The notes beneath the pieces were generated by a model that worked only from the letters and a program-made list of their open reading frames with translations, did not search any database and was not told the DNA's origin. Shown piece by piece: positions 11,521 through 21,907 of a DNA stretch of 64,000 nt. The stretch spans positions 62,001-126,000 of the forward strand of contig NZ_JAKZEY010000001.1 of the NCBI RefSeq assembly GCF_022808955.1, read 5' to 3'. Position 1 is the first letter of the stretch. Every line of letters begins with the position of its first letter. Origin of the DNA: Anaerococcus sp. AGMB09787. Its GTDB lineage: Bacteria > Bacillota > Clostridia > Tissierellales > Peptoniphilaceae. The translations under genes were made by a program, and so were the position numbers.

Positions 11521-11725
11521 AAGAAGAAAATGATTAAGAGTAAGTTAACCCCATAAAGTTAGACCTAATACCAGAGTTAGCATTAACCTCGGTCTGTAAA
11601 TAATTTTGTGTATAAAGCTAAATCCTGATATTAGGGTAAGGGTTATGTATTTTTTATGTATCAATTCTTATCCTTTTCTATAGGAATGAGCTTGTTTTAA
11701 TTTTACACAAGTTTAAATTATAATA
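11521..11725. other. intergenic stretch, nothing recognised
   Basis: No gene, RNA structure or repeat family was recognised here. It lies between the two decayed fragments and is probably degraded coding DNA. Confidence 0.4.
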
Positions 11726-11727
11726 TT

Positions 11728-12087
11728 TTAGTCTATACTTATAAAAGCAAACCATAATACCATATAATCTTTAATGTTTCTAGGATCATAACCAGTAAAT
11801 TCTTTTATTTTATTTAGCCTATATTGTATGGTATTCTTATGCATATATAAATTTTCTGATATTTTATTTATTGATCCATTGTATTTACCATATAAATTTA
11901 TTAAGCTTTTATAAAATCTTAAATCTTTATTTGGTATATTCTTTAATATCATAAATGAGTATACATATATTTCTTTTGACTCTATTGAGGTTATTATTTT
12001 GCCAATATCTAGATCTTCATAAAAAGTTATCTTATTATTTGTGTATCCTCCATAGTATAAAATATTTTGTGTAAAATAGAAAAACAT
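11728..12087 (-). pseudogene. 3' fragment of a CdaR-type regulator
   Basis: The 119-residue frame is the C-terminal third of a CdaR/PucR-family regulator. It contains the helix-turn-helix NGSINKISENLYMHKNTIQYRLNKIKEFTGYDPRNIKDYMVLWFAF. It aligns residue for residue with the end of the intact regulator at 20828-21907 (both share TFYEDLDIG, ILKNIP and YMHKN.IQYRL), and the DNA matches too. The N-terminal diacid-sensing domain and middle region are missing. It has no convincing ribosome site before its first ATG. It is most likely a truncated paralogue, though a DNA-binding-only product cannot be excluded. Confidence 0.8.
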
Positions 12088-12148
12088 AATACAGGTAGCT
12101 TATTTAAAATGTTATTTGCTATTTCAGCCAATATTTAAATAAAAATAT

Positions 12149-12177
12149 TTGACAAACGTATTCACCTAAGATATACT
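12149..12177 (+). promoter_or_regulatory. strong sigma-A promoter of the fucose-type cluster
   Basis: A perfect -35 TTGACA (12149-12154) is followed after exactly 17 bases by TATACT (12172-12177). It points into the catabolic cluster. The first thing downstream is a ruined dehydrogenase gene, so transcripts now start with about 650 bases of pseudogene before the SDR gene. Confidence 0.8.
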
Positions 12178-12204
12178 GTAAATGAAGACGGATATAAAGA
12201 TATA

Positions 12205-12218
12205 TTCGTAAATACGAA
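12205..12218. promoter_or_regulatory. palindromic operator candidate
   Basis: TTCGTA (12205-12210) and TACGAA (12213-12218) form a perfect palindrome around AA. It lies about 20 bases downstream of the predicted transcription start of the cluster, a good place for a repressor. The IclR protein of the same cluster is the obvious candidate ligand, by inference. Confidence 0.5.
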
Positions 12219-12235
12219 CTAATTAGGGAGGTTAA

Positions 12236-12807
12236 ATGTAAGGTAGATTTATTTTGAATATGGCAAGTTTATATTGATATGGTGCATTAGATAAATTGAG
12301 AAGTGCTGAGATATAGAAATTTTAAAAGGACCGATTTTCTTTTAGCCAAGCTTTTGAAATATTACAATATATCTGATAAAGTAACTGGTAATTTGTACAA
12401 TTTGGAAAACGTTGGCTGCGGGTATTTTACAGCTAGCAAAGTAAATACGTAAAGTAAAAATATTGTGGACGGTTTAAAAGCTATAAGGGATTTTGATGCT
12501 GATGGAATTATGGCTAGAGCTGGTGGACCAATTATAGATACTGCCAAACTATTTCTATAATCAATGGGAACAACGAGTATGAAAAATGTTGAGGTATTTG
12601 TTGGAGAAGTGATAAGAAAAATTATGGTATTTCGATAATCGCTATTTCTACAACTGCCGGAACAGCTGAAGAAGTTGAATACCTCTAGATTTGAAGGAGA
12701 TAGATAAATAGTCGACTATAAATTTTCTGGGAAAATCTCTTATGGATGTAAACCGGTACAGTCAAGGGAATCGATAATTGATGCAATCAAAGAACTTTAT
12801 AGAAATT
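12236..12807 (+). pseudogene. ruined iron-containing alcohol dehydrogenase (lactaldehyde reductase type?)
   Basis: A good ribosome site (AGGGAGG) is followed by ATG TAA at 12236. Family pieces then appear in shifting frames: RFILNMASLY.YGALDKL (N-terminal strand and glycine turn), GIMARAGGPIIDTAKLFL around 12505-12560 (NAD-binding GGG..DTAK motif), ISTTAGTAEEVEYL around 12645-12690 (the PTTAGTGSEV motif), and a plausible C-terminal end CKPVQSRESIIDAIKELYRN. It spans about 570 bases where the family needs about 1150, with several stops and frameshifts, so it is dead. Position at the head of the cluster suggests it once reduced lactaldehyde like FucO; that is inference. Confidence 0.75.
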
Positions 12808-12840
12808 AATTTAGTATAAGTATAAATTAGGGAGGAAATT

Positions 12841-13632
12841 ATGGATTTAAATTTAAAGGATAAGGTATTTATTATAACTGGTGGTTTCAAAGGCATAGGT
12901 AGAGCTATTTCTTTACAACTTGCAAAAGAAGGTGCAATACCAGTCGTGTTAAATAGGAAAAATGATGTAGCTGAAGAATATGAGAATACTTTAAAAGAAA
13001 TAACTGATAATTATTCAATATATTATATAGATTTAAATAATACAGCACAAATCGCTCCTATTGTACAAGAGGTAGTAGATAAATATGGTAAAATCAATGG
13101 TATTGTTAATAATGCGGGAAGGAATGATAATCTAAGTTTGGAAGAAACAAGTTGGGAAGATTTTGAAAAATCAATTCATTCAAACTTAACCCATTATTAT
13201 GAATTAGTCCATCAATCAGTTAAGTATTTAAAAGAGAGTAAGGGTGCGGTAGTTAATATTTCTTCTAAAACCGCTCTTACCGGACAAGGCAAAACATCAG
13301 CTTATGCAGCAGCTAAGGGTGCTATATTAGGACTTACAAGAGAATGGGCAGCTGCACTAGCAAAAGATGATGTAAGAGTAAATGCTATAGTTGTTTCTGA
13401 ATCATGGACTCCACTTTATCAAGATTGGATAAAGACATTTGGTGATAAAGAAGAACAAGAAGCCAGATTAAAAGTAATAACAGATAAAATTCCTCTAGGA
13501 AAAAGAATGACGGATCCTAAAGAGATTGCGAATACCGCGGCATTCTTACTTTCTGATAGGGCATCACATACAACAGGCCAATGGGTATTTGTTGACGGAG
13601 GATATGTACACTTAGATAGAGCACTAAATTAA
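12841..13632 (+). CDS. SDR oxidoreductase, probable L-fucose dehydrogenase
   Basis: This 263-residue classical short-chain dehydrogenase has the cofactor glycine motif TGGFKGIG (13-20), NNAG at 90-93, catalytic Ser142, Tyr155 and Lys159 (YAAAK), and a C-terminal end GGYVHLDRAL. In the known non-phosphorylative fucose route such an enzyme oxidises L-fucose to the lactone (FucX/Cj0485 type). A relative oxidises 2-keto-3-deoxy-fuconate, so either step is possible. It is the first intact gene behind the promoter, with AGGGAGG before the ATG, 18 bases ahead of the fucP-like gene. Assignment to fucose rests on the neighbours. Confidence 0.8.
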   Translation: MDLNLKDKVFIITGGFKGIGRAISLQLAKEGAIPVVLNRKNDVAEEYENTLKEITDNYSIYYIDLNNTAQIAPIVQEVVDKYGKINGIVNNAGRNDNLSLEETSWEDFEKSIHSNLTHYYELVHQSVKYLKESKGAVVNISSKTALTGQGKTSAYAAAKGAILGLTREWAAALAKDDVRVNAIVVSESWTPLYQDWIKTFGDKEEQEARLKVITDKIPLGKRMTDPKEIANTAAFLLSDRASHTTGQWVFVDGGYVHLDRALN

Positions 13633-13650
13633 TGGAGCGGATCGAATATA

Positions 13651-14889
13651 ATGACTAATACAAAATATGATAAAAAAGCTAAAATAGCTATATATTTAGT
13701 AACCTTCTTATTCTTTGCTTGGGGGTTAACAATGAATCTGGTAAATGCATTGAATACTCCTATGGCAAATTATATGGAAATATCTCAAACTAAAGCGAGT
13801 TTGTTACAATTAGCCTACTATGGAGCTTACTTCTTTCTAGCTATACCGGCATCAATAGTTGCTAGAAAATTTGGCTATAAAGTTGGTATGATGATGGGTC
13901 TTTTGCTGTTTATAATAGGTGCTGTATTAACAATGCCCGCCACATACACAATGTCTTATGGTTTATTCTTGTTTGCTATGTTTGTAACGGCATCAGGAGC
14001 TGCTACATTGGAAACAAATTGTAATCCGTATATAACAAAACTAGGAGATCCTAAAAAAGAATCATTTAGACTAAATCTTGCTCAATCTTTTAACGGAGTA
14101 GGAAATATAGTCGGACCATTTATACTGGGATCTTTAATAGGAGAAACAATAGCTCCCGGACAAAGTGGATTTGAAGTGGCAAAAAGTGAATTTTTAACCG
14201 GAACCAGAACTATATACATCGGCATAGCAATAGCTATAGCAATAGTATTTTTGTTCTTCTTCTTTATAAAATTACCAAGCCCTGATAATGATGATGAACA
14301 AGTATCTAACGAATCAACACCTGTAGTTTTAAAAAGATTGTTCAATGTTAAGCACTTTAGATTAGGTGTTATTGCAGCTTTTATATTCATAGGACTTCAA
14401 GTCGTAGGAATGAGCTTATTTTCATCATATGCGATGGAATTTTGGAAAGGAATGAGTGCAGGAACGGCTACTAAATATCTATCAATAGTATCTTTACTAT
14501 TTACAGTAGGAAGATTTATAACAACCCCTCTTATGAACAAGGTCTCACCTAATAAGATATTGGGAATATATATGACAATAAGTGCCATCTTAATGGGAGT
14601 CGTAAGTCTAGGATTCGGCAAATTTTCAGTAATAGCATTCATGGTTGCATATCTATTTATATCAATAGGTTTCCCAACAATCTATTCTCTATCCTTGGTT
14701 GGAATAAAGGGTAATGATGCGAAAACAGGAGCATCACTTCTTACAATGAGTATAGTTGGAGCAGCTTTAATACCAGTATTGATATCAGCAATCGGAGATA
14801 AATTAAGTTTACAAGTTGCAATGGCAATTACCGCCGTAGGATTTATATATTGTGCTTGGTATGGTTTTGTTGGATCTAAAAGGAGATAA
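13651..14889 (+). CDS. fucP: FucP-type L-fucose permease (MFS)
   Basis: This 412-residue, twelve-segment MFS protein carries FucP-family blocks: FFAWGLTMNL near 21-30, LETNCNPYITKLG at 120-132 and RLNLAQSFNGVGNIVGP after it. Glu121 corresponds to E. coli FucP Glu135 in the sugar/proton pocket. By eye the position of E. coli Asp46, the other proton-linked acid, is Asn32 here, which could alter coupling. It should bring L-fucose or a similar deoxysugar across the membrane. The stop codon overlaps the ribosome site of the amidohydrolase gene. Confidence 0.85.
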   Translation: MTNTKYDKKAKIAIYLVTFLFFAWGLTMNLVNALNTPMANYMEISQTKASLLQLAYYGAYFFLAIPASIVARKFGYKVGMMMGLLLFIIGAVLTMPATYTMSYGLFLFAMFVTASGAATLETNCNPYITKLGDPKKESFRLNLAQSFNGVGNIVGPFILGSLIGETIAPGQSGFEVAKSEFLTGTRTIYIGIAIAIAIVFLFFFFIKLPSPDNDDEQVSNESTPVVLKRLFNVKHFRLGVIAAFIFIGLQVVGMSLFSSYAMEFWKGMSAGTATKYLSIVSLLFTVGRFITTPLMNKVSPNKILGIYMTISAILMGVVSLGFGKFSVIAFMVAYLFISIGFPTIYSLSLVGIKGNDAKTGASLLTMSIVGAALIPVLISAIGDKLSLQVAMAITAVGFIYCAWYGFVGSKRR

Positions 14890-14890
14890 T

Positions 14891-15682
14891 ATGGCAGAAA
14901 AATTGAAAATGATAGATACCCATTTTCATATATGGGATTTAAATAGGCAAAATTTACCTTGGTTGGATGACGTTAAAGAATTGCAAGCTAGCTTTTCTAT
15001 TGACGATTATTTAAAAGCTTATGAAGACATAGATGATATAGATTTTAAGGGAGGAGTTTATGTTGAAGTTGATTCAGATAATCCTTACCTAGAAGATGAA
15101 ATAATCTATGATATAAAGAAAAATAATGATAAATTATTAGGAGTTGTAGCCAGATCTGAAGTTTCGCCTTCAATGAGACTTCCTATATTTTCTATTGGAG
15201 TAAGAGAACCCCTACACGTAGATAGTTCAAAAAGAGGAAGATGCTTGGAAGATAGCTTTATTGAGGGAATAAAAGAATTAAGTGCCAATAAATTTACTTT
15301 CGATTCATGCAACAGGGTAGATGAATTGGGAGATTTAGTTAAATTAATGGAAAAAGTTCCTGATGCTAAGGTTGTCTTGAATCACCTGGGAAATGTAGAA
15401 AGTCTAAGCAGTGATTATAAGGATAATATGAAAGCATTAGCAAAATTTCCGAATCTGTATTTGAAAGTTTCAGGTTATCCAACAGGAGATAAGAAATTTG
15501 TAAAAGAACTATTACAATTTATAAAGGAGACTTTCTCAGCCGATAAATTGATGTATGCTTCAAATTGGCCTGTAATAAAGACTTATTCAAATTTAAAAGA
15601 GCACTTGAGTATATTGAGAGAAGAGTTTTACGATAATGAAGATTTCTTCTATAATAATGCTAAAAGATGCTACGGGTTATAG
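14891..15682 (+). CDS. amidohydrolase-2 family lactonase, probable L-fuconolactonase
   Basis: This 263-residue metal-dependent TIM-barrel hydrolase opens with the metal-binding motif IDTHFHIWDL (His11 and His13). It continues with VVLNHLGN and YASNWPV, which carry further active-site His and acidic positions. The FHIWDL..LPW start is typical of sugar lactonases that open fuconolactone, galactarolactone or rhamnonolactone. In this cluster it would hydrolyse L-fuconolactone to L-fuconate. The frame is open further upstream, but the ATG at 14891 is chosen because AAAGGAGATAAT precedes it directly. Confidence 0.8.
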   Translation: MAEKLKMIDTHFHIWDLNRQNLPWLDDVKELQASFSIDDYLKAYEDIDDIDFKGGVYVEVDSDNPYLEDEIIYDIKKNNDKLLGVVARSEVSPSMRLPIFSIGVREPLHVDSSKRGRCLEDSFIEGIKELSANKFTFDSCNRVDELGDLVKLMEKVPDAKVVLNHLGNVESLSSDYKDNMKALAKFPNLYLKVSGYPTGDKKFVKELLQFIKETFSADKLMYASNWPVIKTYSNLKEHLSILREEFYDNEDFFYNNAKRCYGL

Positions 15683-15689
15683 TGAGAAA

Positions 15690-15719
15690 ATCTTATTTAC
15701 AATAAAAATATAATAAGAT
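15690..15719 (+). other. small inverted repeat between lactonase and permease genes
   Basis: ATCTTATT (15690-15697) pairs with AATAAGAT (15712-15719) over 14 bases, ending just before the ribosome site of the next gene. It has no T run, so an mRNA stability or processing hairpin is more likely than a terminator. Confidence 0.35.
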
Positions 15720-15729
15720 AGGAGAATTT

Positions 15730-16716
15730 ATGATTTTAAAATTTTTGAAAAAAATTCCTGCCGGAATGATGATTGTTCCAATGTTCATTTCATCACTTAT
15801 AAACTCGTTTTTTCCCGATCTATTACAGATAGGTTCATTTACAACCGCTGTTTTTACAAGCGCTGGAACTTCTGCTATTCTTGGTGTGCAACTAGTTTGT
15901 ATGGGGGCTCAGTTAAGAGTAAAGGAATTAGCAGAAGTTGTTAAAAGAGGCGGGGTTCTCCTTCTATCAAAATATATAATAGGAGCGATAATTGGAATTT
16001 TAATAGGTAAATTTTTTGGAAAAGAAGGTGTATTTGGTCTTACAACCTTGGCTATAATAAGTGCTATTACCAATTCCAACGGATCCATGTATTTGGCATT
16101 GAATGTTGAATATGGTGATGAAGTTGATCAGACAGCGATGAGTCTTTTGTCAATTAACGATGGACCGTTTCTAACATTGATTACTTTAGGAGCTAGTGGT
16201 TTGGCACAAATACCTATACAATCATTAATAGCTGTTATTGTTCCTATAGTCTTTGGTATGGTGATAGGTAATATAGATAAAAAAATGAGTGAATTTTTGG
16301 AACCGGGCATTGGATTACTTCTACCTTTTGTAGGAATAACTCTGGGAGCTGGTATCGATGTTAAAGGAATAGTTTCCGGTGGAGCTCCCGGTATACTTTT
16401 AGGAATAATTACAATTTGTGTAAGTGGACCTTTTGTAGTTTTGTGTGATAGGATATTTAATAAAAGGCCTGGATATGCCGGATGGGCAGTTTCATCAACA
16501 GCCGGAAACGCAATTGCAGTACCTGCAGTTGTTGCATCAATTGATCCTACCCGGGCACCTTACGTAGCAGCTGCAACTACTCAAGTAGCAGCATCTACAG
16601 TTATGACTGCTATATTTATTCCTATAATAACAGCTTGGCGGGCTAAGAAATTTGGCTCTCCAAAATATCCTTTACCGGGTCAAGATTTTAGTAAAAAAGA
16701 TTGGAAGAAACAATAG
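15730..16716 (+). CDS. KdgT-type 2-keto-3-deoxy sugar acid permease
   Basis: This 328-residue membrane protein has about ten hydrophobic segments. KdgT family landmarks include KKIPAGMMIVPMF at the N-terminus, GSFT, LSTLAL-like TTLAIISAITNSNGSMYLAL, SINDGPFLTLITLG and STAGNAIAVPAVVA. Characterised members import 2-keto-3-deoxygluconate by H+ symport. Here the likely cargo is a fuconate-type or keto-deoxy acid, giving the cell a second entry point into the pathway below the sugar dehydrogenase. This gene replaces the second MFS transporter of the Campylobacter locus. It has AGGAG before the ATG. Confidence 0.8.
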   Translation: MILKFLKKIPAGMMIVPMFISSLINSFFPDLLQIGSFTTAVFTSAGTSAILGVQLVCMGAQLRVKELAEVVKRGGVLLLSKYIIGAIIGILIGKFFGKEGVFGLTTLAIISAITNSNGSMYLALNVEYGDEVDQTAMSLLSINDGPFLTLITLGASGLAQIPIQSLIAVIVPIVFGMVIGNIDKKMSEFLEPGIGLLLPFVGITLGAGIDVKGIVSGGAPGILLGIITICVSGPFVVLCDRIFNKRPGYAGWAVSSTAGNAIAVPAVVASIDPTRAPYVAAATTQVAASTVMTAIFIPIITAWRAKKFGSPKYPLPGQDFSKKDWKKQ

Positions 16717-16726
16717 GGGAGGATTT

Positions 16727-17020
16727 ATGATAAATGCTTTAATTATAAATGAAAAAGATAATGTAATAGTAGCAATCGAACCTATAGAAAAAGGGGATGA
16801 GGTAGAGTATAAAGATCTAGATGGACAAATTAAAAAAGTTAAAGCTCTGGATAATATTAAGATATACCATAAAATTGCTATTCGTGATATAGCAAAGGAT
16901 AGTACCGTTATAAAATACGGTGAACATATAGGATTTGCTCTAAGAGATATAAAAATTGGAGAACATGTCCACGACCATAATACTGAAGGTCGTCGTGAAG
17001 ATCTGGAAGCTATTGAATAA
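16727..17020 (+). CDS. UxaA-type dehydratase, N-terminal (SAF) subunit
   Basis: This 97-residue protein is a stand-alone SAF domain as found at the N-terminus of altronate/galactarate dehydratases. It contains NVIVAIEPIEKGD, IKIYHKIAIRDI, VIKYGEHIGFA and GEHVHDHN. The larger catalytic part is the next gene, so the enzyme is split into two polypeptides as in the Campylobacter fuc locus (Cj0482/Cj0483). I start at ATG 16727 behind GGGGAGG, although the frame runs further upstream. The complex would dehydrate L-fuconate to 2-keto-3-deoxy-L-fuconate. Confidence 0.85.
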   Translation: MINALIINEKDNVIVAIEPIEKGDEVEYKDLDGQIKKVKALDNIKIYHKIAIRDIAKDSTVIKYGEHIGFALRDIKIGEHVHDHNTEGRREDLEAIE

Positions 17021-17037
17021 GAAAGGAGACTTAGTTT

Positions 17038-18210
17038 ATGACTAAAACTTTTTTAGGATATAAAAGAAGTGATGGAAAAGTCGGAATAAGAAATCATGTG
17101 CTTGTATTACCATGCTCTGTTTGTGCTTCAGACACAACCAGGATAATAGCCGGAAAATATGAAAACGCAGTTACATTTAATATGCAACTAGGATGTTCTC
17201 AAATTGGTAAAGATTTCGAATACACGGTAGATACAATATCAGGTTTCGCAGCAAATCCTAACATATATGCTACAGTTTTGGTATCTCTAGGATGCGAAAC
17301 AGCACAAATTAAACTGGTAAAAGAAAGAATAGAAGAGAGAACTAATAAGCCTTTAAAATCTGTCGTTATACAAGAAGAAGGCGGAACTATAAAGGCTATT
17401 GAAAAAGCAAGTTCATATGTTGAAGAGTTCCTGGAAGAAGCGGATAAATTGGAAAGAGAAGAATTTCCGATATCAGAGTTAATCATGGGAACAGAATGTG
17501 GGGGTTCAGATCCTACAAGTGGACTAGCATCCAATGTACTAATCGGTAATTTGTCAGATAAAATGGTTGAAAATGGTGGTACTACAGTATTAAGTGAAAC
17601 TACCGAATTCATAGGGGCTGAACATATACTGGCAAGACGAGCTAAAAATGACGAAGTTAAAAAAAGAATTTATGATATAGTTCATAGATATGAGGATCAT
17701 ATAAGAATCAATACTGGTGAGGAAGTAAGAGAAGGAAATCCGTCACCGGGAAATAAAGAAGGCGGTCTTACAACTCTTGAAGAGAAATCCCTTGGTTGTA
17801 TACACAAGGGTGGAACGACAAGCGTAAATCAAGTTTATGATTATGCAAAAGATTTAAAGACAAAAGAAGGCTTAGTAATAATGGATACACCCGGCAATGA
17901 CCCTTCATCAGTTGCGGGTATGATTGCAGGAGGATGCCAAATAGTAGTATTCTCAACGGGAAGAGGAACACCGACAGGTAATCCTATAGCACCTGTTATA
18001 AAAATTACAGGCAATAGAGAAACAGCAAAAAATATGGCTGATAACTTGGACCGGGATGCATCTCCAACTATATACGGAGAAAAATCTATGGATGAATTGG
18101 CAGACCAATATTTTGACGAATTAATTGAATTTTGTAATGGAAAATTAACAAAAGCTGAAGCATTGGGATATACTGAGCTTGCTATACAAAGGGGAGCGAA
18201 TTTCGTATAA
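17038..18210 (+). CDS. UxaA-type dehydratase, large subunit (probable L-fuconate dehydratase)
   Basis: This 390-residue protein is the C-terminal domain family of altronate/galactarate dehydratases. Landmarks are FLGYKRSDGKVGIRNHVLVLP at the start, GTECGGSDPTSGLASN, NPSPGNKEGGLTTLEEKSLG and STGRGTPTGNPIAPV. Conserved cysteines fit the iron-dependent active site of this family. It pairs with the SAF subunit 17 bases upstream, preceded by AAAGGAG. Substrate (fuconate rather than altronate) is inferred from the FucP-like and lactonase neighbours. Confidence 0.88.
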   Translation: MTKTFLGYKRSDGKVGIRNHVLVLPCSVCASDTTRIIAGKYENAVTFNMQLGCSQIGKDFEYTVDTISGFAANPNIYATVLVSLGCETAQIKLVKERIEERTNKPLKSVVIQEEGGTIKAIEKASSYVEEFLEEADKLEREEFPISELIMGTECGGSDPTSGLASNVLIGNLSDKMVENGGTTVLSETTEFIGAEHILARRAKNDEVKKRIYDIVHRYEDHIRINTGEEVREGNPSPGNKEGGLTTLEEKSLGCIHKGGTTSVNQVYDYAKDLKTKEGLVIMDTPGNDPSSVAGMIAGGCQIVVFSTGRGTPTGNPIAPVIKITGNRETAKNMADNLDRDASPTIYGEKSMDELADQYFDELIEFCNGKLTKAEALGYTELAIQRGANFV

Positions 18211-18232
18211 AATAAAGAATTTAGGAGGAAAT

Positions 18233-19132
18233 ATGTGTGAAATAATAGTACCGGTTGTTACGGTATTTGATGAAAATGAAAAGCCTGATTTTGAACAAAA
18301 TAAAAAAGTTATAGATTTTCTGGTAGAAGGCGGAGTTGATGGAATTCTTGTTCTCGGTTCTACTGGAGAATTTACGGTCTTGGATTATGAAGACAAATTA
18401 CAATTTGCAAAAGACTATTATGACTATACAAATGGTAGAGTAGATCTTTACTTTGGCAGTAATTGTCCATCATTTGAAGATACTTTGAATTTAAGTAATG
18501 AAGCTATTAAAATAGGCTACAAGGGAGTTATGGTAGTAGGTCCATATTATTATGGAACGGATGATGAAAAAATGACAATCTACTATGATAAATTGGCCAA
18601 AAATGTTGATGGTAATATTTATATATATAACTTCCCTGATAGGAGCGGTTATTCTATATCACCTGAGGCTTATAGAAAATTAGTGTTAGACAACAAAAAT
18701 ATAGTTGGTCTAAAAGATTCCGTTATGGAACCCCTCCATACTAATAGACTTTGCAGGGCTACTGAAAATTTAGGAACTAAAATTTATTCAGGTTACGATG
18801 ACCAATTTTTGTATAATTTATCTACAGGTGGATCAGGTTGTATAGGAGCCTTATCAAACTTAGTTCCTGATATTTGGTCCGATTTGGTAAAATCAACCAG
18901 AGAAAAGGACTTCGATAGAATGTTCAAACTATCAGGATTAATCCATAAACTAATGCCTCTATATGACTTGGATAGTAACTTTGCTCATCTATTTAAAAGA
19001 CTTATGGCTGTCAGAGGCGTTGATATTTCTTCCAAGTCAACATTCCCTTATGACCAATTGGATGAAAAAGTATTTGAAAAAGGTAAAAAATTATTGGAGA
19101 AAGTAATTGAAGAATACCAAGAATTAAAGTAG
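18233..19132 (+). CDS. DapA-family aldolase, probable 2-keto-3-deoxy-fuconate aldolase
   Basis: This 299-residue member of the dihydrodipicolinate synthase/N-acetylneuraminate lyase family has GSTGE at 42-46, Tyr132 in IYNFPDRSG and the Schiff-base Lys161 in NIVGLKDS. It is a class I pyruvate aldolase. Here it would split 2-keto-3-deoxy-L-fuconate into pyruvate and L-lactaldehyde, the role proposed for Cj0481. A housekeeping DapA is less likely given the catabolic operon. The start is ATG 18233 behind AGGAGG; the frame extends further upstream into the dehydratase gene. Confidence 0.82.
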   Translation: MCEIIVPVVTVFDENEKPDFEQNKKVIDFLVEGGVDGILVLGSTGEFTVLDYEDKLQFAKDYYDYTNGRVDLYFGSNCPSFEDTLNLSNEAIKIGYKGVMVVGPYYYGTDDEKMTIYYDKLAKNVDGNIYIYNFPDRSGYSISPEAYRKLVLDNKNIVGLKDSVMEPLHTNRLCRATENLGTKIYSGYDDQFLYNLSTGGSGCIGALSNLVPDIWSDLVKSTREKDFDRMFKLSGLIHKLMPLYDLDSNFAHLFKRLMAVRGVDISSKSTFPYDQLDEKVFEKGKKLLEKVIEEYQELK

Positions 19133-19165
19133 TGTGATATAATATACCATGAGACAGGAGGAATC

Positions 19166-19957
19166 ATGGAAGAAAAATTGCACAACCCCACACTAAGGGT
19201 AGTTAAAATTCTTGAACTCGTTAATAACTATGAAGATGGGATTTCCTTTGCAAATATATCTAAGAAACTCTCTATTCCCAAAAGCACACTTAGTCCAATC
19301 CTAAAAACTTTAGAAAAAACAAACTTTCTCGAAAAAACAGACAAAGGATGCTATATAGCATCCTTTAAACTTTTTCAATTAGGTTTATCCTATTCCGGAC
19401 GTCTTGATATTTTATCTATGATAAGAAAACAGATGGAAGTGGTAGTTAAAGAAATTGGAGAAATTGTTCAATTCGGTATTTTGGTAGATGATATGGTCTT
19501 ATATTTGGAGAAGGTAAATGCCCATGATAACATCGAAATAGTAAGCTCCGTTGGCAAAAAGTTACCGGCAATAAATACCGCATTAGGTAAGGCTTTGTTA
19601 TCAGAATATAATGACGATGAGATAAGAGAACAATATAAAAATTATGAATTTGTCAGCTACACAGAAAAATCAATAAAAAATGTCGATCAACTTCTTGAGC
19701 ATATTTATAGGGTTAGACAACTTGGTTTTGCTACAGAAAATCAAGAATTTACTACAAATACATCTTGTATTGCAGTTCCTATTAGAGAAAATGGTGTTAT
19801 AAAGGGAGCAATGTCTGCAACCTATCCTGTATTTAGAAAAACTGCAAATAAAGAAAAAGAAATTGCGAAAGTTTTGCTAGAACAAAAAGAAATAATAGAA
19901 GATATAATAAAAATACAAAATTTAAAATTGGATTTTGTAGATAGGAGAAAGCAATGA
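19166..19957 (+). CDS. IclR-family transcription regulator of the cluster
   Basis: This 263-residue protein has an N-terminal winged helix (ISFANISKKLSIPKSTLSPILKTLEKTNFLEK, about 22-55) and a C-terminal IclR effector domain (GKKLPAINTALGKALLSEY, then FATENQEFTTNTSCIAVPIREN). Regulators of this family often repress sugar-acid operons and respond to a pathway intermediate. The equivalent gene in Campylobacter (Cj0480c) sits in its fuc locus. AGGAGG precedes the ATG, and its stop overlaps the ATG of the FAH gene by four bases. Its likely target is the palindrome at 12205-12218. Confidence 0.85.
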   Translation: MEEKLHNPTLRVVKILELVNNYEDGISFANISKKLSIPKSTLSPILKTLEKTNFLEKTDKGCYIASFKLFQLGLSYSGRLDILSMIRKQMEVVVKEIGEIVQFGILVDDMVLYLEKVNAHDNIEIVSSVGKKLPAINTALGKALLSEYNDDEIREQYKNYEFVSYTEKSIKNVDQLLEHIYRVRQLGFATENQEFTTNTSCIAVPIRENGVIKGAMSATYPVFRKTANKEKEIAKVLLEQKEIIEDIIKIQNLKLDFVDRRKQ

Positions 19958-20808
19958 GGATATTCAATTTAAAGGTTGACTCCGGAGAGAAACTTGCAAT
20001 AGAAAAAAATGACAAGCTATATTTACTTGAAGACTTGGGATACAGACTTAAGGATATGAATGAGCTTATAGATAGGGAGATCGACCTATCAAATATTGAT
20101 TTTTCAAAGTCTAAGGCTTTAGACAAAACTTATAAAATCCAAAGCCCTATAGTTTTTCCCAAGCAAGATATAATTTGTTTGGGCATGAACTACTTGGATC
20201 ACAAAGATGAAGTTGAGAAAGTATCAAAAGAAGATTTTTCTAAAGATGTAGATACCATATATTTTTCCAAAAGAGCAAATAGAATTTTGGGATTTGGGGA
20301 CACAATTCCTTTGAATGAAAATATAACAAATCAATTTGACTATGAGGTTGAGCTTTGCCTAATAATTGGAAAAGATGCCAAAAATGTAAGTAAGAAAGAG
20401 GCATCCTCTTATATATTCGGGTTTTCCATATTCAATGACCTATCAGCCAGAGATTTACAAAGAAAATACAAGCAACGGTACTATGGAAAAAGTTTTGATT
20501 ATTCTTCCGTAATGGGTCCTGCTATACTTATAAATGACGGATCATTTAATTATAATAATCTCGAATTGACTACCAGAATAAATGGTGAATTAAGGCAAAA
20601 AAACACTACAAAAAATATGATCTTGTCAGTCGAGGGCATCATAGAAGATTTATCAAAGGCAATGACCCTCAAAAAAGGCACAATAATAGCCACAGGAACA
20701 CCGGCTGGTGTTGCTATGTCATCAGATTCTTTTGGATATCTATCTAAAGGTGATGAAATCCAAATGGAAATAGAAAATATAGGTGAACTTTATAATAAAA
20801 TAGGCTGA
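19954..20808 (+). CDS. fumarylacetoacetate-hydrolase family protein
   Basis: This 284-residue protein has an FAH fold with a small N-terminal domain. Family motifs are ICLGMNYLDHKDEV, the metal-site acids in FDYEVELCLIIGKDA, FSIFNDLSARDLQ and ATGTPAGVAM. In the Xanthomonas fucose route an FAH-family enzyme cleaves 2,4-diketo-3-deoxy-L-fuconate to pyruvate and L-lactate, so this could be an alternative end to the pathway. Other diketo acids are possible. It is translationally coupled to the IclR gene and convergent with the CdaR-type regulator 19 bases away. Confidence 0.78.
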   Translation: MRIFNLKVDSGEKLAIEKNDKLYLLEDLGYRLKDMNELIDREIDLSNIDFSKSKALDKTYKIQSPIVFPKQDIICLGMNYLDHKDEVEKVSKEDFSKDVDTIYFSKRANRILGFGDTIPLNENITNQFDYEVELCLIIGKDAKNVSKKEASSYIFGFSIFNDLSARDLQRKYKQRYYGKSFDYSSVMGPAILINDGSFNYNNLELTTRINGELRQKNTTKNMILSVEGIIEDLSKAMTLKKGTIIATGTPAGVAMSSDSFGYLSKGDEIQMEIENIGELYNKIG

Positions 20809-20827: not shown

Positions 20828-21907
20828 TTAGCTTATACTTATAAAGGCAAAGTATAGAACCATATAATCATTTATTTTTCGTGGATCATAACCGGTATAA
20901 TCTTTTATTTTATGAAGTCTATATTGGATTGAATTTTTGTGCATATACAAACTATCAGCTATTTTTGTTATCGAGCCATTATGAAAACCGTATAATTTTA
21001 TTAGTTTTTTGTAAAATTCCAAGTCCTTATCAGGAATATTTTTTAAAATTCTATATGAAAATTCATATAAATCTTTAGAATCTATGGAAGTAATTAATCT
21101 ACCTATATCAAGGTCTTCATAGAAAGTTAAATCCTTATCTGTATAAATTCCCCACATATAGGCCTTTTTTGCTTCCTCATAAAAATTGTTCGCATGCTTA
21201 CAATAATAAAAACTTTTGCTTACTCCTATGTGAATTTTAAATCCTACTTTTTCTTTGATTAATTTTTCAATGTCACTTAACATTACTTTGCTTGAATCCT
21301 TATCGTGACCGATAAGAAGTATAATTAATTCATCCTGGATTAAACTAGCGTAGATTCCTAGAAACTTCATATTTATTTGTATATATTTTATTAATTTTTC
21401 CCTTTTCTCAAATTTATAATTATATGGGAATTTACTAAAAGCTAGAGTTTTAGTTGACTCATCAAATTTATCAGGTTTATAATTTAAATTTTCACTTTTA
21501 TTATGGATCAAAGCCTCTATAAAATTTCTGGTATTTTCCTTTTCGAAACTTTGATTTTCTTTGATCCGTTCTTCTTTTAAAAGTATTTCGGTCATCTTTT
21601 TAATTATAGTTCCATATTTTTCTACTTCCTTTCCGCCTGAGATGCCTATGACTCCAATAACTTCATTATCGAATTCTATAGGTAGATTAATTCCGGGTCT
21701 TGATCCCTTATATTGATATCTATTTTCTATATAAATTGTCCTATTTTCCGCTACACATTTTTTGCTTGCCTCATGATAAGTGTTTATCCTGTCAGGATCT
21801 GTTGATGCTATTATGTATCCTTTATTATTCATCAGATTTATATTTTGATTTATAACGCCCTTTAGATTATAGACTATCTCTTGGGCTAAATTTTTTGATA
21901 TTTTCAT
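20828..21907 (-). CDS. CdaR-type sugar diacid/glycerate regulator
   Basis: This 359-residue regulator has an N-terminal diacid-recognition domain (LAQEIVYNLKGVINQNINLMNNKGYIIASTDPDRIN, then GINLPIEFDNEVIGVIGISG) and a C-terminal PucR-type helix-turn-helix (NGSITKIADSLYMHKNSIQYRLHKIK). In E. coli CdaR activates glycerate and glucarate genes. Here it is divergent from a glycerate kinase and a GntP permease, which are the natural targets. The start follows AGAGGGG. A truncated paralogue lies on the far side of the fucose-type cluster (11728-12087). Confidence 0.88.
   Translation of the reverse strand: MKISKNLAQEIVYNLKGVINQNINLMNNKGYIIASTDPDRINTYHEASKKCVAENRTIYIENRYQYKGSRPGINLPIEFDNEVIGVIGISGGKEVEKYGTIIKKMTEILLKEERIKENQSFEKENTRNFIEALIHNKSENLNYKPDKFDESTKTLAFSKFPYNYKFEKREKLIKYIQINMKFLGIYASLIQDELIILLIGHDKDSSKVMLSDIEKLIKEKVGFKIHIGVSKSFYYCKHANNFYEEAKKAYMWGIYTDKDLTFYEDLDIGRLITSIDSKDLYEFSYRILKNIPDKDLEFYKKLIKLYGFHNGSITKIADSLYMHKNSIQYRLHKIKDYTGYDPRKINDYMVLYFAFISIS

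What the first reader, a model, noticed from the sequence alone, without database searches (positions are those of the whole stretch)
12149..20808. Campylobacter-type non-phosphorylative L-fucose cluster in a Gram-positive anaerobe
The intact genes are SDR dehydrogenase, FucP-type porter, lactonase-type amidohydrolase, KdgT-like permease, split UxaA-type dehydratase (97 + 390 residues), DapA-family aldolase, IclR regulator and FAH hydrolase. Except for KdgT and FAH, this is the gene content of the C. jejuni fuc locus (Cj0480c-Cj0487), including the split dehydratase. It predicts L-fucose to fuconolactone, fuconate, 2-keto-3-deoxy-fuconate, then pyruvate plus lactaldehyde, with no FucI/FucK. 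Family calls are seen in the sequence; substrate is inferred from the combination. A locus with an extra keto-acid permease and FAH enzyme may be a new variant.
Basis: partly seen in the sequence, partly recalled or inferred. Interest (0 to 1): 0.8.

Follow-up and report, generated by a model that had tools for sequence, protein, structure and literature searches.

The report
Anaerobe L-fucose operon with acid permease
A Gram-positive anaerobe of the Peptoniphilus family carries an operon that most likely breaks down the mucus sugar L-fucose without phosphorylating it, and it includes a permease that may also let the cell take up the half-oxidised sugar (fuconate) made by others.

Summary
The SDR scores 409 bits against NCBI's L-fucose dehydrogenase model (cut-off 300). 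No L-fucose isomerase or GH29 fucosidase was found in the genome. So L-fucose to fuconate to pyruvate plus lactaldehyde is well supported, though not proved.

"Campylobacter-type" holds for function, not descent: SDR and UxaA trees place the locus with other Peptoniphilaceae, and the aldolase shares only 23-24% identity with Campylobacter-type ones. The same operon, with a lactaldehyde reductase (fucO) in front, exists in Peptoniphilus faecalis. In the window fucO is a decayed relic; an intact fucO lies elsewhere in the genome.

KdgT is not a stray extra. In 130 family genomes, KdgT at 72% identity or more occurs in exactly the 11 with UxaA at 71% or more, in one cluster each. Seven of these lack the sugar dehydrogenase. 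A permease beside a dehydratase, without the sugar steps, most simply imports an aldonate, probably L-fuconate, not a keto-acid. The operon then has two entries, sugar and acid. New variant of a known pathway; no substrate has been tested.

The parts
12149..12177 (+). sigma-70-type promoter match TTGACA-17-TATACT
   Evidence: 11 of 12 consensus positions, best of 15 sites in 11600-13000; shuffles give a mean of 10.3 sites. A similar promoter precedes fucO in L045/L047 and kdgT in L024/L025
12205..12218 (+). inverted repeat TTCGTA-AA-TACGAA just after the promoter, candidate operator
   Evidence: read in sequence. A like site, ACGNAAATRCGAAC, occurs once per genome at the same operon in G003, G334, G407, G416; the window copy differs from that pattern at its first base, so G000 itself scored 0; backward control hit 5 of 13 genomes
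12236..12676 (+). decayed fucO (lactaldehyde reductase) relic with in-frame stops and frame changes; beyond residue 148 of 383 only a weak scrap remains
   Evidence: tblastn of intact FucO from L045, combined E 2e-20 over three pieces; C-terminal scrap E 0.002; three-frame translation
12841..13632 (+). L-fucose dehydrogenase (SDR)
   Evidence: NF052481 409 bits, cut-off 300; 6drr and 4gkb
13651..14889 (+). FucP-like MFS sugar porter
   Evidence: TIGR00885 269 bits, just under cut-off 280; E. coli FucP 3o7q 201 bits
14891..15682 (+). amidohydrolase-2 family lactonase, probable L-fuconolactonase
   Evidence: PF04909; 6uvz 227 bits; NF052480 only 53 of 400 bits
15730..16716 (+). KdgT-family acid permease, probable aldonate (L-fuconate) importer
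   Evidence: PF03812 388 bits; TIGR00793 kdgT 217 of 454 bits; co-occurrence with UxaA
16727..17020 (+). UxaA-type dehydratase, N part (SAF domain)
   Evidence: PF08666
17038..18210 (+). UxaA-type dehydratase, C part, probable L-fuconate dehydratase
   Evidence: PF04295 and PF20629; tree of 43 rows
18233..19132 (+). DapA/DHDPS-family aldolase, probable 2-keto-3-deoxy-L-fuconate aldolase
   Evidence: PF00701; closest solved chain YagE
19166..19957 (+). IclR-family regulator
   Evidence: PF01614, PF09339
19954..20808 (+). FAH-family enzyme, accessory, role open
   Evidence: PF01557; 8sky 181 bits, 6iym 159 bits

Best explanation
This is an oxidative, non-phosphorylative L-fucose operon (it may also take D-arabinose) of a Peptoniphilaceae lineage. 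L-fucose enters through the FucP-like porter, is oxidised by the SDR to fuconolactone, opened by the amidohydrolase to L-fuconate, dehydrated by the two-part UxaA enzyme to 2-keto-3-deoxy-L-fuconate, and split by the DapA-family aldolase to pyruvate and L-lactaldehyde. Lactaldehyde is reduced to 1,2-propanediol by FucO, here encoded elsewhere because the operon's own fucO has decayed. The KdgT-family permease gives the operon a second entry: it most likely imports L-fuconate or a like aldonate straight to the dehydratase. IclR probably represses the operon through the repeat after the promoter. Shown here: gene families, the over-cut-off dehydrogenase, gene order, the fucO relic, and the KdgT-UxaA co-occurrence. 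Inferred: every substrate, the KdgT substrate and direction, and regulation. My estimates: L-fucose as main sugar 0.85; aldolase route to lactaldehyde 0.8; KdgT as aldonate importer 0.55, with L-fuconate its main substrate 0.45. The confidence below is for the fucose pathway together with KdgT as an aldonate importer.
For: SDR over the L-fucose dehydrogenase cut-off, 409 against 300 bits, full-length match to C. jejuni FucX 6drr, whose activity on L-fucose and D-arabinose is published (PMC6946681, abstract and passages). No L-fucose isomerase found in the genome; FucI in 0 of the 5 FucDH-bearing family genomes. Identical gene order with an intact fucO at the front in L047 (P. faecalis) and L045; the L045 FucO passes the lactaldehyde reductase cut-off, 547 against 523 bits. 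The relic at that position in the window and an intact FucO at G000:C1:141791-142927, 598 bits, both fit a lactaldehyde product. KdgT at 72% or more in 11 of 130 genomes, the same 11 that hold UxaA-C at 71% or more; 4 of the 11 have FucDH. The 7 without it keep KdgT, UxaA and DapA together (the DapA of G334 is in two frames); G414 also keeps FucO beside them, linking an acid-only module to lactaldehyde. A KdgT-family permease was shown to import the aldonate D-threonate (PMC10079672, passages).
Against: No substrate was measured. The lactonase and porter are below their equivalog cut-offs, and UxaA's best named model is galactarate dehydratase, far below cut-off. KdgT could export, or import another aldonate. 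FucO was not found in the loci of six of the seven genomes without FucDH (L024, L025, L049-L052), so a lactaldehyde product is not shown for those. A secreted fuconate supply in this organism's habitat is not demonstrated: published L-fuconic acid was found in C. jejuni cell extracts. The trees do not settle whether the sugar half was gained or lost in G003/G334.
Confidence: 0.55

Rival explanations
1. Plain L-fucose operon in which KdgT does not feed the pathway but exports surplus L-fuconate or 2-keto-3-deoxyfuconate, or is a hitch-hiker.
For: [quoted passage not shown] jejuni given fucose (PMC6946681, passages), so an outlet could be useful; KdgT is missing from most other fucose loci examined: among the 51 scan loci L060-L110 it was found only in L060 and L061.
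Against: Seven genomes keep KdgT with the dehydratase and aldolase but have no dehydrogenase over the cut-off to make fuconate, so there is no evident source to export from; KdgT is among the best conserved genes of the operon (88-90% to the other full operons).
Confidence: 0.25
2. The main sugar is not L-fucose but D-arabinose, L-galactose or another L-galacto-configured sugar.
For: FucX and the B. multivorans enzyme act on D-arabinose, and L-galactose to a degree (PMC6946681, passages); UxaA-family dehydratases are described as promiscuous in the title of a paper cited in PMC13406643 (that paper not read).
Against: FucO at the head of the intact operon fits lactaldehyde, the product of a 6-deoxy sugar; SDR passes the L-fucose equivalog.
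Confidence: 0.12
3. The locus is decaying and no longer works: loss of fucO is the first step.
For: fucO relic with stops and most of its 3' part gone; fucO also truncated in L048; aldolase in two frames in G334.
Against: Nine intact ORFs, promoter match and inverted repeat in place; another intact lactaldehyde reductase in the genome.
Confidence: 0.1
4. 2-keto-3-deoxyfuconate is oxidised and cleaved by the FAH enzyme to pyruvate and lactate (Xanthomonas/Burkholderia route).
For: An FAH-family gene is in the operon; a double role of such SDRs was proposed for Bifidobacterium and Corynebacterium clusters (PMC5583593, passages).
Against: FAH is far below the 2,4-didehydro-3-deoxyrhamnonate hydrolase cut-off, 118 of 500 bits, and closest to 8sky, 6iym and HpcE 1gtt; G003/G334 have FAH without the SDR; only one other match to the FucDH model in the genome.
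Confidence: 0.06

Closest known systems
C. jejuni fuc locus Cj0480c-Cj0490
   Same: SDR FucX, FucP, amidohydrolase, split UxaA, DapA-family enzyme, IclR regulator; same proposed route (PMC6946681, PMC12566272, passages)
   Different: No mutarotase or aldehyde dehydrogenase in this operon; IclR inside the operon; extra KdgT, FAH and fucO relic
Peptoniphilus faecalis / Peptoniphilus sp. SUG200 ten-gene locus (L047/L061, L045/L060)
   Same: Same genes and order, 65-89% identity gene by gene
   Different: fucO intact there; FAH in L045/L060 is cut by the contig end
P. senegalensis locus (L026/L062)
   Same: SDR-FucP-lactonase-DapA-UxaA-IclR with FucO tail to tail
   Different: No KdgT, no FAH; DapA 41%, IclR 38% identical
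Bifidobacterium fucose clusters
   Same: Homologous SDR and lactonase, FucP in many; 1,2-propanediol as product (PMC7732495, abstract and passages)
   Different: No UxaA-type gene found in the Bifidobacterium loci examined
Halomonas L-fuconate-only locus and TRAP transporter
   Same: Predicted use of fuconate without the first two fucose steps; a Chromohalobacter TRAP transporter for L-fuconate and L-galactonate is cited (PMC5507952, passages)
   Different: TRAP, not KdgT; Gammaproteobacteria; other downstream route

Membership tests
L-fucose dehydrogenase (NCBIfam NF052481) | score over curated cut-off 300 | tested here: met
   409 bits
L-fucose dehydrogenase (NCBIfam NF052481) | SDR catalytic Asn-Ser-Tyr-Lys (roles recalled): N115, S142, Y155, K159 | tested here: met
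   invariant in a 3-row alignment
L-fucose dehydrogenase (NCBIfam NF052481) | activity on L-fucose | not testable with these tools
   needs assay
C. jejuni-type fuc locus | SDR, FucP, amidohydrolase, two-part UxaA, DapA-family enzyme and IclR in one locus | tested here: met
C. jejuni-type fuc locus | orthologous aldolase | tested here: not met
   23-24% identity; Campylobacter-type pair on its own 100/100 branch
C. jejuni-type fuc locus | mutarotase and aldehyde dehydrogenase genes, divergent IclR | tested here: not met
   present in L155, not in the window operon
Phosphorylative fucose pathway | L-fucose isomerase in genome | tested here: not met
   PF02952 no match in G000, 98% complete
2-keto-3-deoxygluconate permease KdgT (TIGR00793) | score over cut-off 453.8 | tested here: not met
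   216.8 bits; family PF03812 met
L-fucose:H+ symporter FucP (TIGR00885) | score over cut-off 280.4 | tested here: not met
   269.1 bits
L-fucose:H+ symporter FucP (TIGR00885) | acidic residues at E. coli D46 and E135 (roles recalled) | tested here: not met
   D46 is Asn32, E135 is kept as Glu121
L-fuconolactonase (NF052480) | score over cut-off 400 | tested here: not met
   53.1 bits
Galactarate dehydratase (TIGR03248) | score over cut-off 730.85 | tested here: not met
   UxaA-C 206.2 bits, UxaA-N 33.2 bits
2,4-didehydro-3-deoxy-L-rhamnonate hydrolase (NF053535) | score over cut-off 500 | tested here: not met
   118.4 bits
Lactaldehyde reductase FucO (TIGR02638) | intact gene in the operon | tested here: not met
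   relic only
Lactaldehyde reductase FucO (TIGR02638) | intact gene in the genome over cut-off 523 | tested here: met
   G000:C1:141791-142927, 597.9 bits

The most novel reading that the evidence does not exclude
In Peptoniphilaceae a core of UxaA dehydratase, DapA-family aldolase and IclR regulator for L-fuconate is combined with exchangeable entry cassettes: sugar (FucP-SDR-lactonase), acid (KdgT) and perhaps lactone (a PTS EIIC-like permease with an amidohydrolase, L046/L054/L055). The window operon carries both the sugar and the acid cassettes, so it can use free fucose and also scavenge L-fuconate left by other microbes or the host. KdgT would be an L-fuconate importer of a family I did not see reported for that acid (paper searches), and fuconate a cross-fed currency of mucosal communities.
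Probability: 0.35. Interest if true: 0.6.

Novelty: new variant of a known kind. Interest (0 to 1): 0.42.

Why it matters
L-fucose caps host mucus and milk glycans, and Peptoniphilaceae are frequent human anaerobes (both recalled). A gut-microbiome survey found the dehydrogenase (fucolactone) route in only 8 genomes, all Actinobacteria (PMC5583593, passages). Here its first enzyme is found over cut-off in 5 of 130 Peptoniphilaceae genomes, in loci with an aldolase ending. The acid-only relatives give a concrete prediction that fuconate is a nutrient exchanged between organisms, and a way to test it with one permease.

Tried and rejected
Rejected: (1) kinship with the Campylobacter locus. (2) KdgT as the KDG permease or as a chance extra. 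(3) FAH as the 2,4-diketo hydrolase. (4) The idea that the window operon is a fresh fusion of a fucose half with a genus-native acid module: the intact ten-gene operon in P. faecalis, and in SUG200 up to a cut FAH, shows the arrangement is older.

Led nowhere or inconclusive: a nucleotide search for the lost sugar genes between promoter and kdgT in L024 and L025. Three of four leader comparisons stayed under the maximum of 100 simple shuffles and one was just above it, 85 against 80. A 32-residue FucO C-terminal match in L025 had E 1.3e-4, with no such match in L024; it suggests, but does not prove, that these loci lost the sugar half. The operator pattern was found in 4 of 13 genomes and not in the window genome, whose site differs at one base; the backward control also hit in 5 of 13, so only its position speaks for it. 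The joint KdgT-UxaA tree has 6 of 11 inner branches open. The tree program warned that long branches meet in the UxaA and SDR trees, so the deep joins there are unsure. The genus of the window could not be named. GH95 fucosidases were not searched. No structure prediction or fold search was run.

Dropped rows: L071 from the UxaA tree (too short); L060, L061, L062 and L103 left out as second copies of L045, L047, L026 and L027; L024 DapA left out because it is in two frames; scan loci with no UxaA hit are not in that tree; scan loci L111-L139 were not examined for gene order, three of them (L111, L113, L122) used only in the SDR tree. Of 294 relatives found by the scan only the best 80 were kept by the tool.
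Full report
Observation. Gene gaps run from -4 to 47 nt, each start preceded by a purine-rich stretch. Base composition is 32-36% G+C over 12-20 kb, against 37% or more in 14 of the 18 two-kb steps from 28 to 64 kb; the neighbouring 20-28 kb is also low, 29-34%.

Names. That makes the window's family Peptoniphilaceae. Its genus stayed unnamed.

From 12236 an ATG opens a frame that matches intact FucO from L045 in three pieces and two frames (combined E 2e-20), with several stops; beyond residue 148 of 383 only a weak scrap (E 0.002) is left before the SDR. In L047 (P. faecalis) and L045 (SUG200) an intact fucO stands in just that place, followed by SDR, FucP, lactonase, KdgT, UxaA-N, UxaA-C, DapA, IclR and FAH (FAH of L045 cut by the contig end). 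The L045 FucO scores 547 bits against the lactaldehyde reductase cut-off of 523. L048 (G369) has the same order but a truncated fucO, and its contig ends just past IclR. The window genome keeps another intact lactaldehyde reductase, G000:C1:141791-142927, 598 bits, outside the window.

Sugar. The SDR scores 409 bits against the L-fucose dehydrogenase model, cut-off 300. At E 1e-40 only two solved sequences match: 6drr, the C. jejuni FucX (named so in PMC6946681), and 4gkb. FucDH over the cut-off occurs in 5 of 130 Peptoniphilaceae genomes, the window's being the only one of its genus among them, in 3 of 291 genomes drawn from the class, and in 4 of 248 of the order of a Helicobacter that bears it. 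L-fucose isomerase (PF02952) was not found in the window genome and is over its cut-off in 4 of 31 genus genomes. None of the 5 FucDH genomes has it. GH29 fucosidase was not found in the window genome and is present in 7 of 31, so free fucose would probably come from others; GH95 was not searched.

Lineage. In the SDR tree (40 rows) the window joins L045, L047 and L048 (99/96) and then P. senegalensis L026 (95/67), apart from a 17-row clade of Negativicutes, Helicobacter, Campylobacter-type rows and L027 (99/98). In the UxaA-C tree (43 rows) it lies in a 21-row clade of Peptoniphilaceae and Coriobacteriaceae (100/99). The Campylobacter-type DapA pair stands alone (100/100). The program warned of long branches meeting in the first two trees, so the deepest joins are unsure. 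FucP agrees: the position of E. coli Asp46 is Asn in the window, L026, L045, L047, L048 and Collinsella L088, and Asn in five, Ser in one and Ala in one of seven actinobacterial rows looked at. It is Asp in the 17 other rows of the 23-row alignment: Negativicutes, Helicobacter- and Campylobacter-type rows and L027.

KdgT. The permease belongs to PF03812 but scores less than half the KDG-permease cut-off. In 130 family genomes KdgT at 72% or more identity occurs in 11: G000, G003, G334, G369, G377, G388, G389, G405, G407, G414 and G416. The same 11 hold UxaA-C at 71% or more, and in each the two genes sit in one cluster. The next KdgT is at 47%. Only 4 of the 11 have FucDH. The other 7 are acid-only at the locus: KdgT, UxaA-N, UxaA-C and DapA, with IclR in five and FAH in G003 and G334 (the contig of G389 ends after DapA, and the DapA of G334 is in two frames). 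Because these loci keep the dehydratase, the imported acid should lie upstream of it, that is an aldonate. G414 has KdgT-DapA-UxaA-IclR with FucO tail to tail, its FucO 92% and IclR 72% identical to those of the P. senegalensis fucose locus, which ties an acid-only locus to lactaldehyde and so to a 6-deoxy acid. A KdgT-family permease imports D-threonate in E. coli, and the same paper takes L-fuconate and D-arabinonate dehydratases as acting on acids of the same (2S,3R) configuration (PMC10079672, passages). Against: no transport was measured, and in six of the seven acid-only loci no FucO was found. FucI is present in G003, G334 and G389 (G389 has 9% contamination) and was not found in G377, G388, G405 and G414.

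History. By DapA the window pairs with G003 (94/90), then L045/L047 (together 100/98), then L048 (100/99), with frontless loci outside. One gain of the sugar half with loss in G003/G334 is the simplest reading. A FucO C-terminal scrap directly upstream of kdgT in L025 (E 1.3e-4) agrees but is weak, and L024 shows none. L047 and L048 are 96-100% identical in DNA from the start of the SDR through KdgT and then 62-86% from within UxaA-N on: either recombination that moves the sugar half between genera or a chimeric metagenome contig; I cannot tell which. The promoter-operator block is shared by fucO-headed and kdgT-headed operons (four comparisons, scores 139, 136, 123 and 116 against maxima of 102, 117, 97 and 93 in 60 simple shuffles each), and the pattern ACGNAAATRCGAAC occurs once in each of G003, G334, G407 and G416, always at this operon. 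The window's own site differs from it at one base, and the backward control hit in 5 of 13 genomes, so frequency alone shows nothing.

FAH. Its best solved relatives are 8sky and 6iym, then HpcE 1gtt, well ahead of the L-2,4-diketo-3-deoxyrhamnonate hydrolase 8gsr. I recall 8sky as B. subtilis YisK, for which oxaloacetate tautomerase activity is published (PMC10825186, passages). I take FAH as an accessory enzyme of keto-acid handling, function open.

Print. Searches listed no paper whose title or abstract start describes a KdgT gene in a fucose locus or this pathway in Peptoniphilaceae; the lists were capped. Of 45 papers holding 'Peptoniphilus' and 'fucose', 15 were listed and none of these read. 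Most subscription journals are not in the library. PMC5583593 (passages) found the fucolactone pathway only in Actinobacteria among its gut genomes and already predicted a DHDPS-family aldolase there. PMC5507952 (passages) already proposed fuconate-only use in a Halomonas. So the pathway and the idea of fuconate uptake are known kinds; the KdgT-bearing, two-entry operon is the new variant.

Noticed in passing
window 11728-12087 (-) and 20828-21907 (-): The fucose operon lies between a 119-aa C-terminal fragment of a CdaR/sugar-diacid regulator and a full 359-aa CdaR (65% identical over the fragment), the latter next to a glycerate 2-kinase-like gene and a GntP-family permease. GntP-like fragments (by eye, not scanned) also lie beside the operon in L048. 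Perhaps a favoured insertion site.
   Followed up: partly
window 13651-14889: The FucP-like porter has Asn where E. coli FucP has Asp46 (recalled as the proton-coupling residue); same in the other Peptoniphilaceae rows, one Collinsella and 4 of 5 Bifidobacterium rows, Asp in the 17 other rows of the 23-row alignment. Coupling may differ.
   Followed up: partly
L046 2725-7283, L054, L055: A third locus type: PTS EIIC-like protein (no EIIB/EIIA domain found) with an Amidohydro_2 gene, DapA, two-part UxaA and IclR (the first two genes scanned in L046 only). P. faecalis carries it beside the KdgT type. Possible lactone uptake.
   Followed up: partly
L148 (G003), L149 (G334): Two congeners have L-fucose isomerase, with FucU, an FGGY kinase and FucO beside it in G003 and a GH29 fucosidase between kinase and FucO in G334, plus the acid-only KdgT module.
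   Followed up: partly
L024 7396-8291: The DapA aldolase of G334 is split over two frames: a frameshift or a sequencing error.
   Followed up: no
L047 8200-8300 against L048: Sharp identity drop within UxaA-N between two genera, 98% to 84% to 78% in 200-nt steps.
   Followed up: partly
L028, L056, L057: More distant KdgT homologues (44-46%) sit with UxaA, a four-carbon-acid-kinase-like protein (SBD_N/NBD_C) and a PdxA-like gene (families scanned in L028 only), another acid-catabolic context of this permease family.
   Followed up: no
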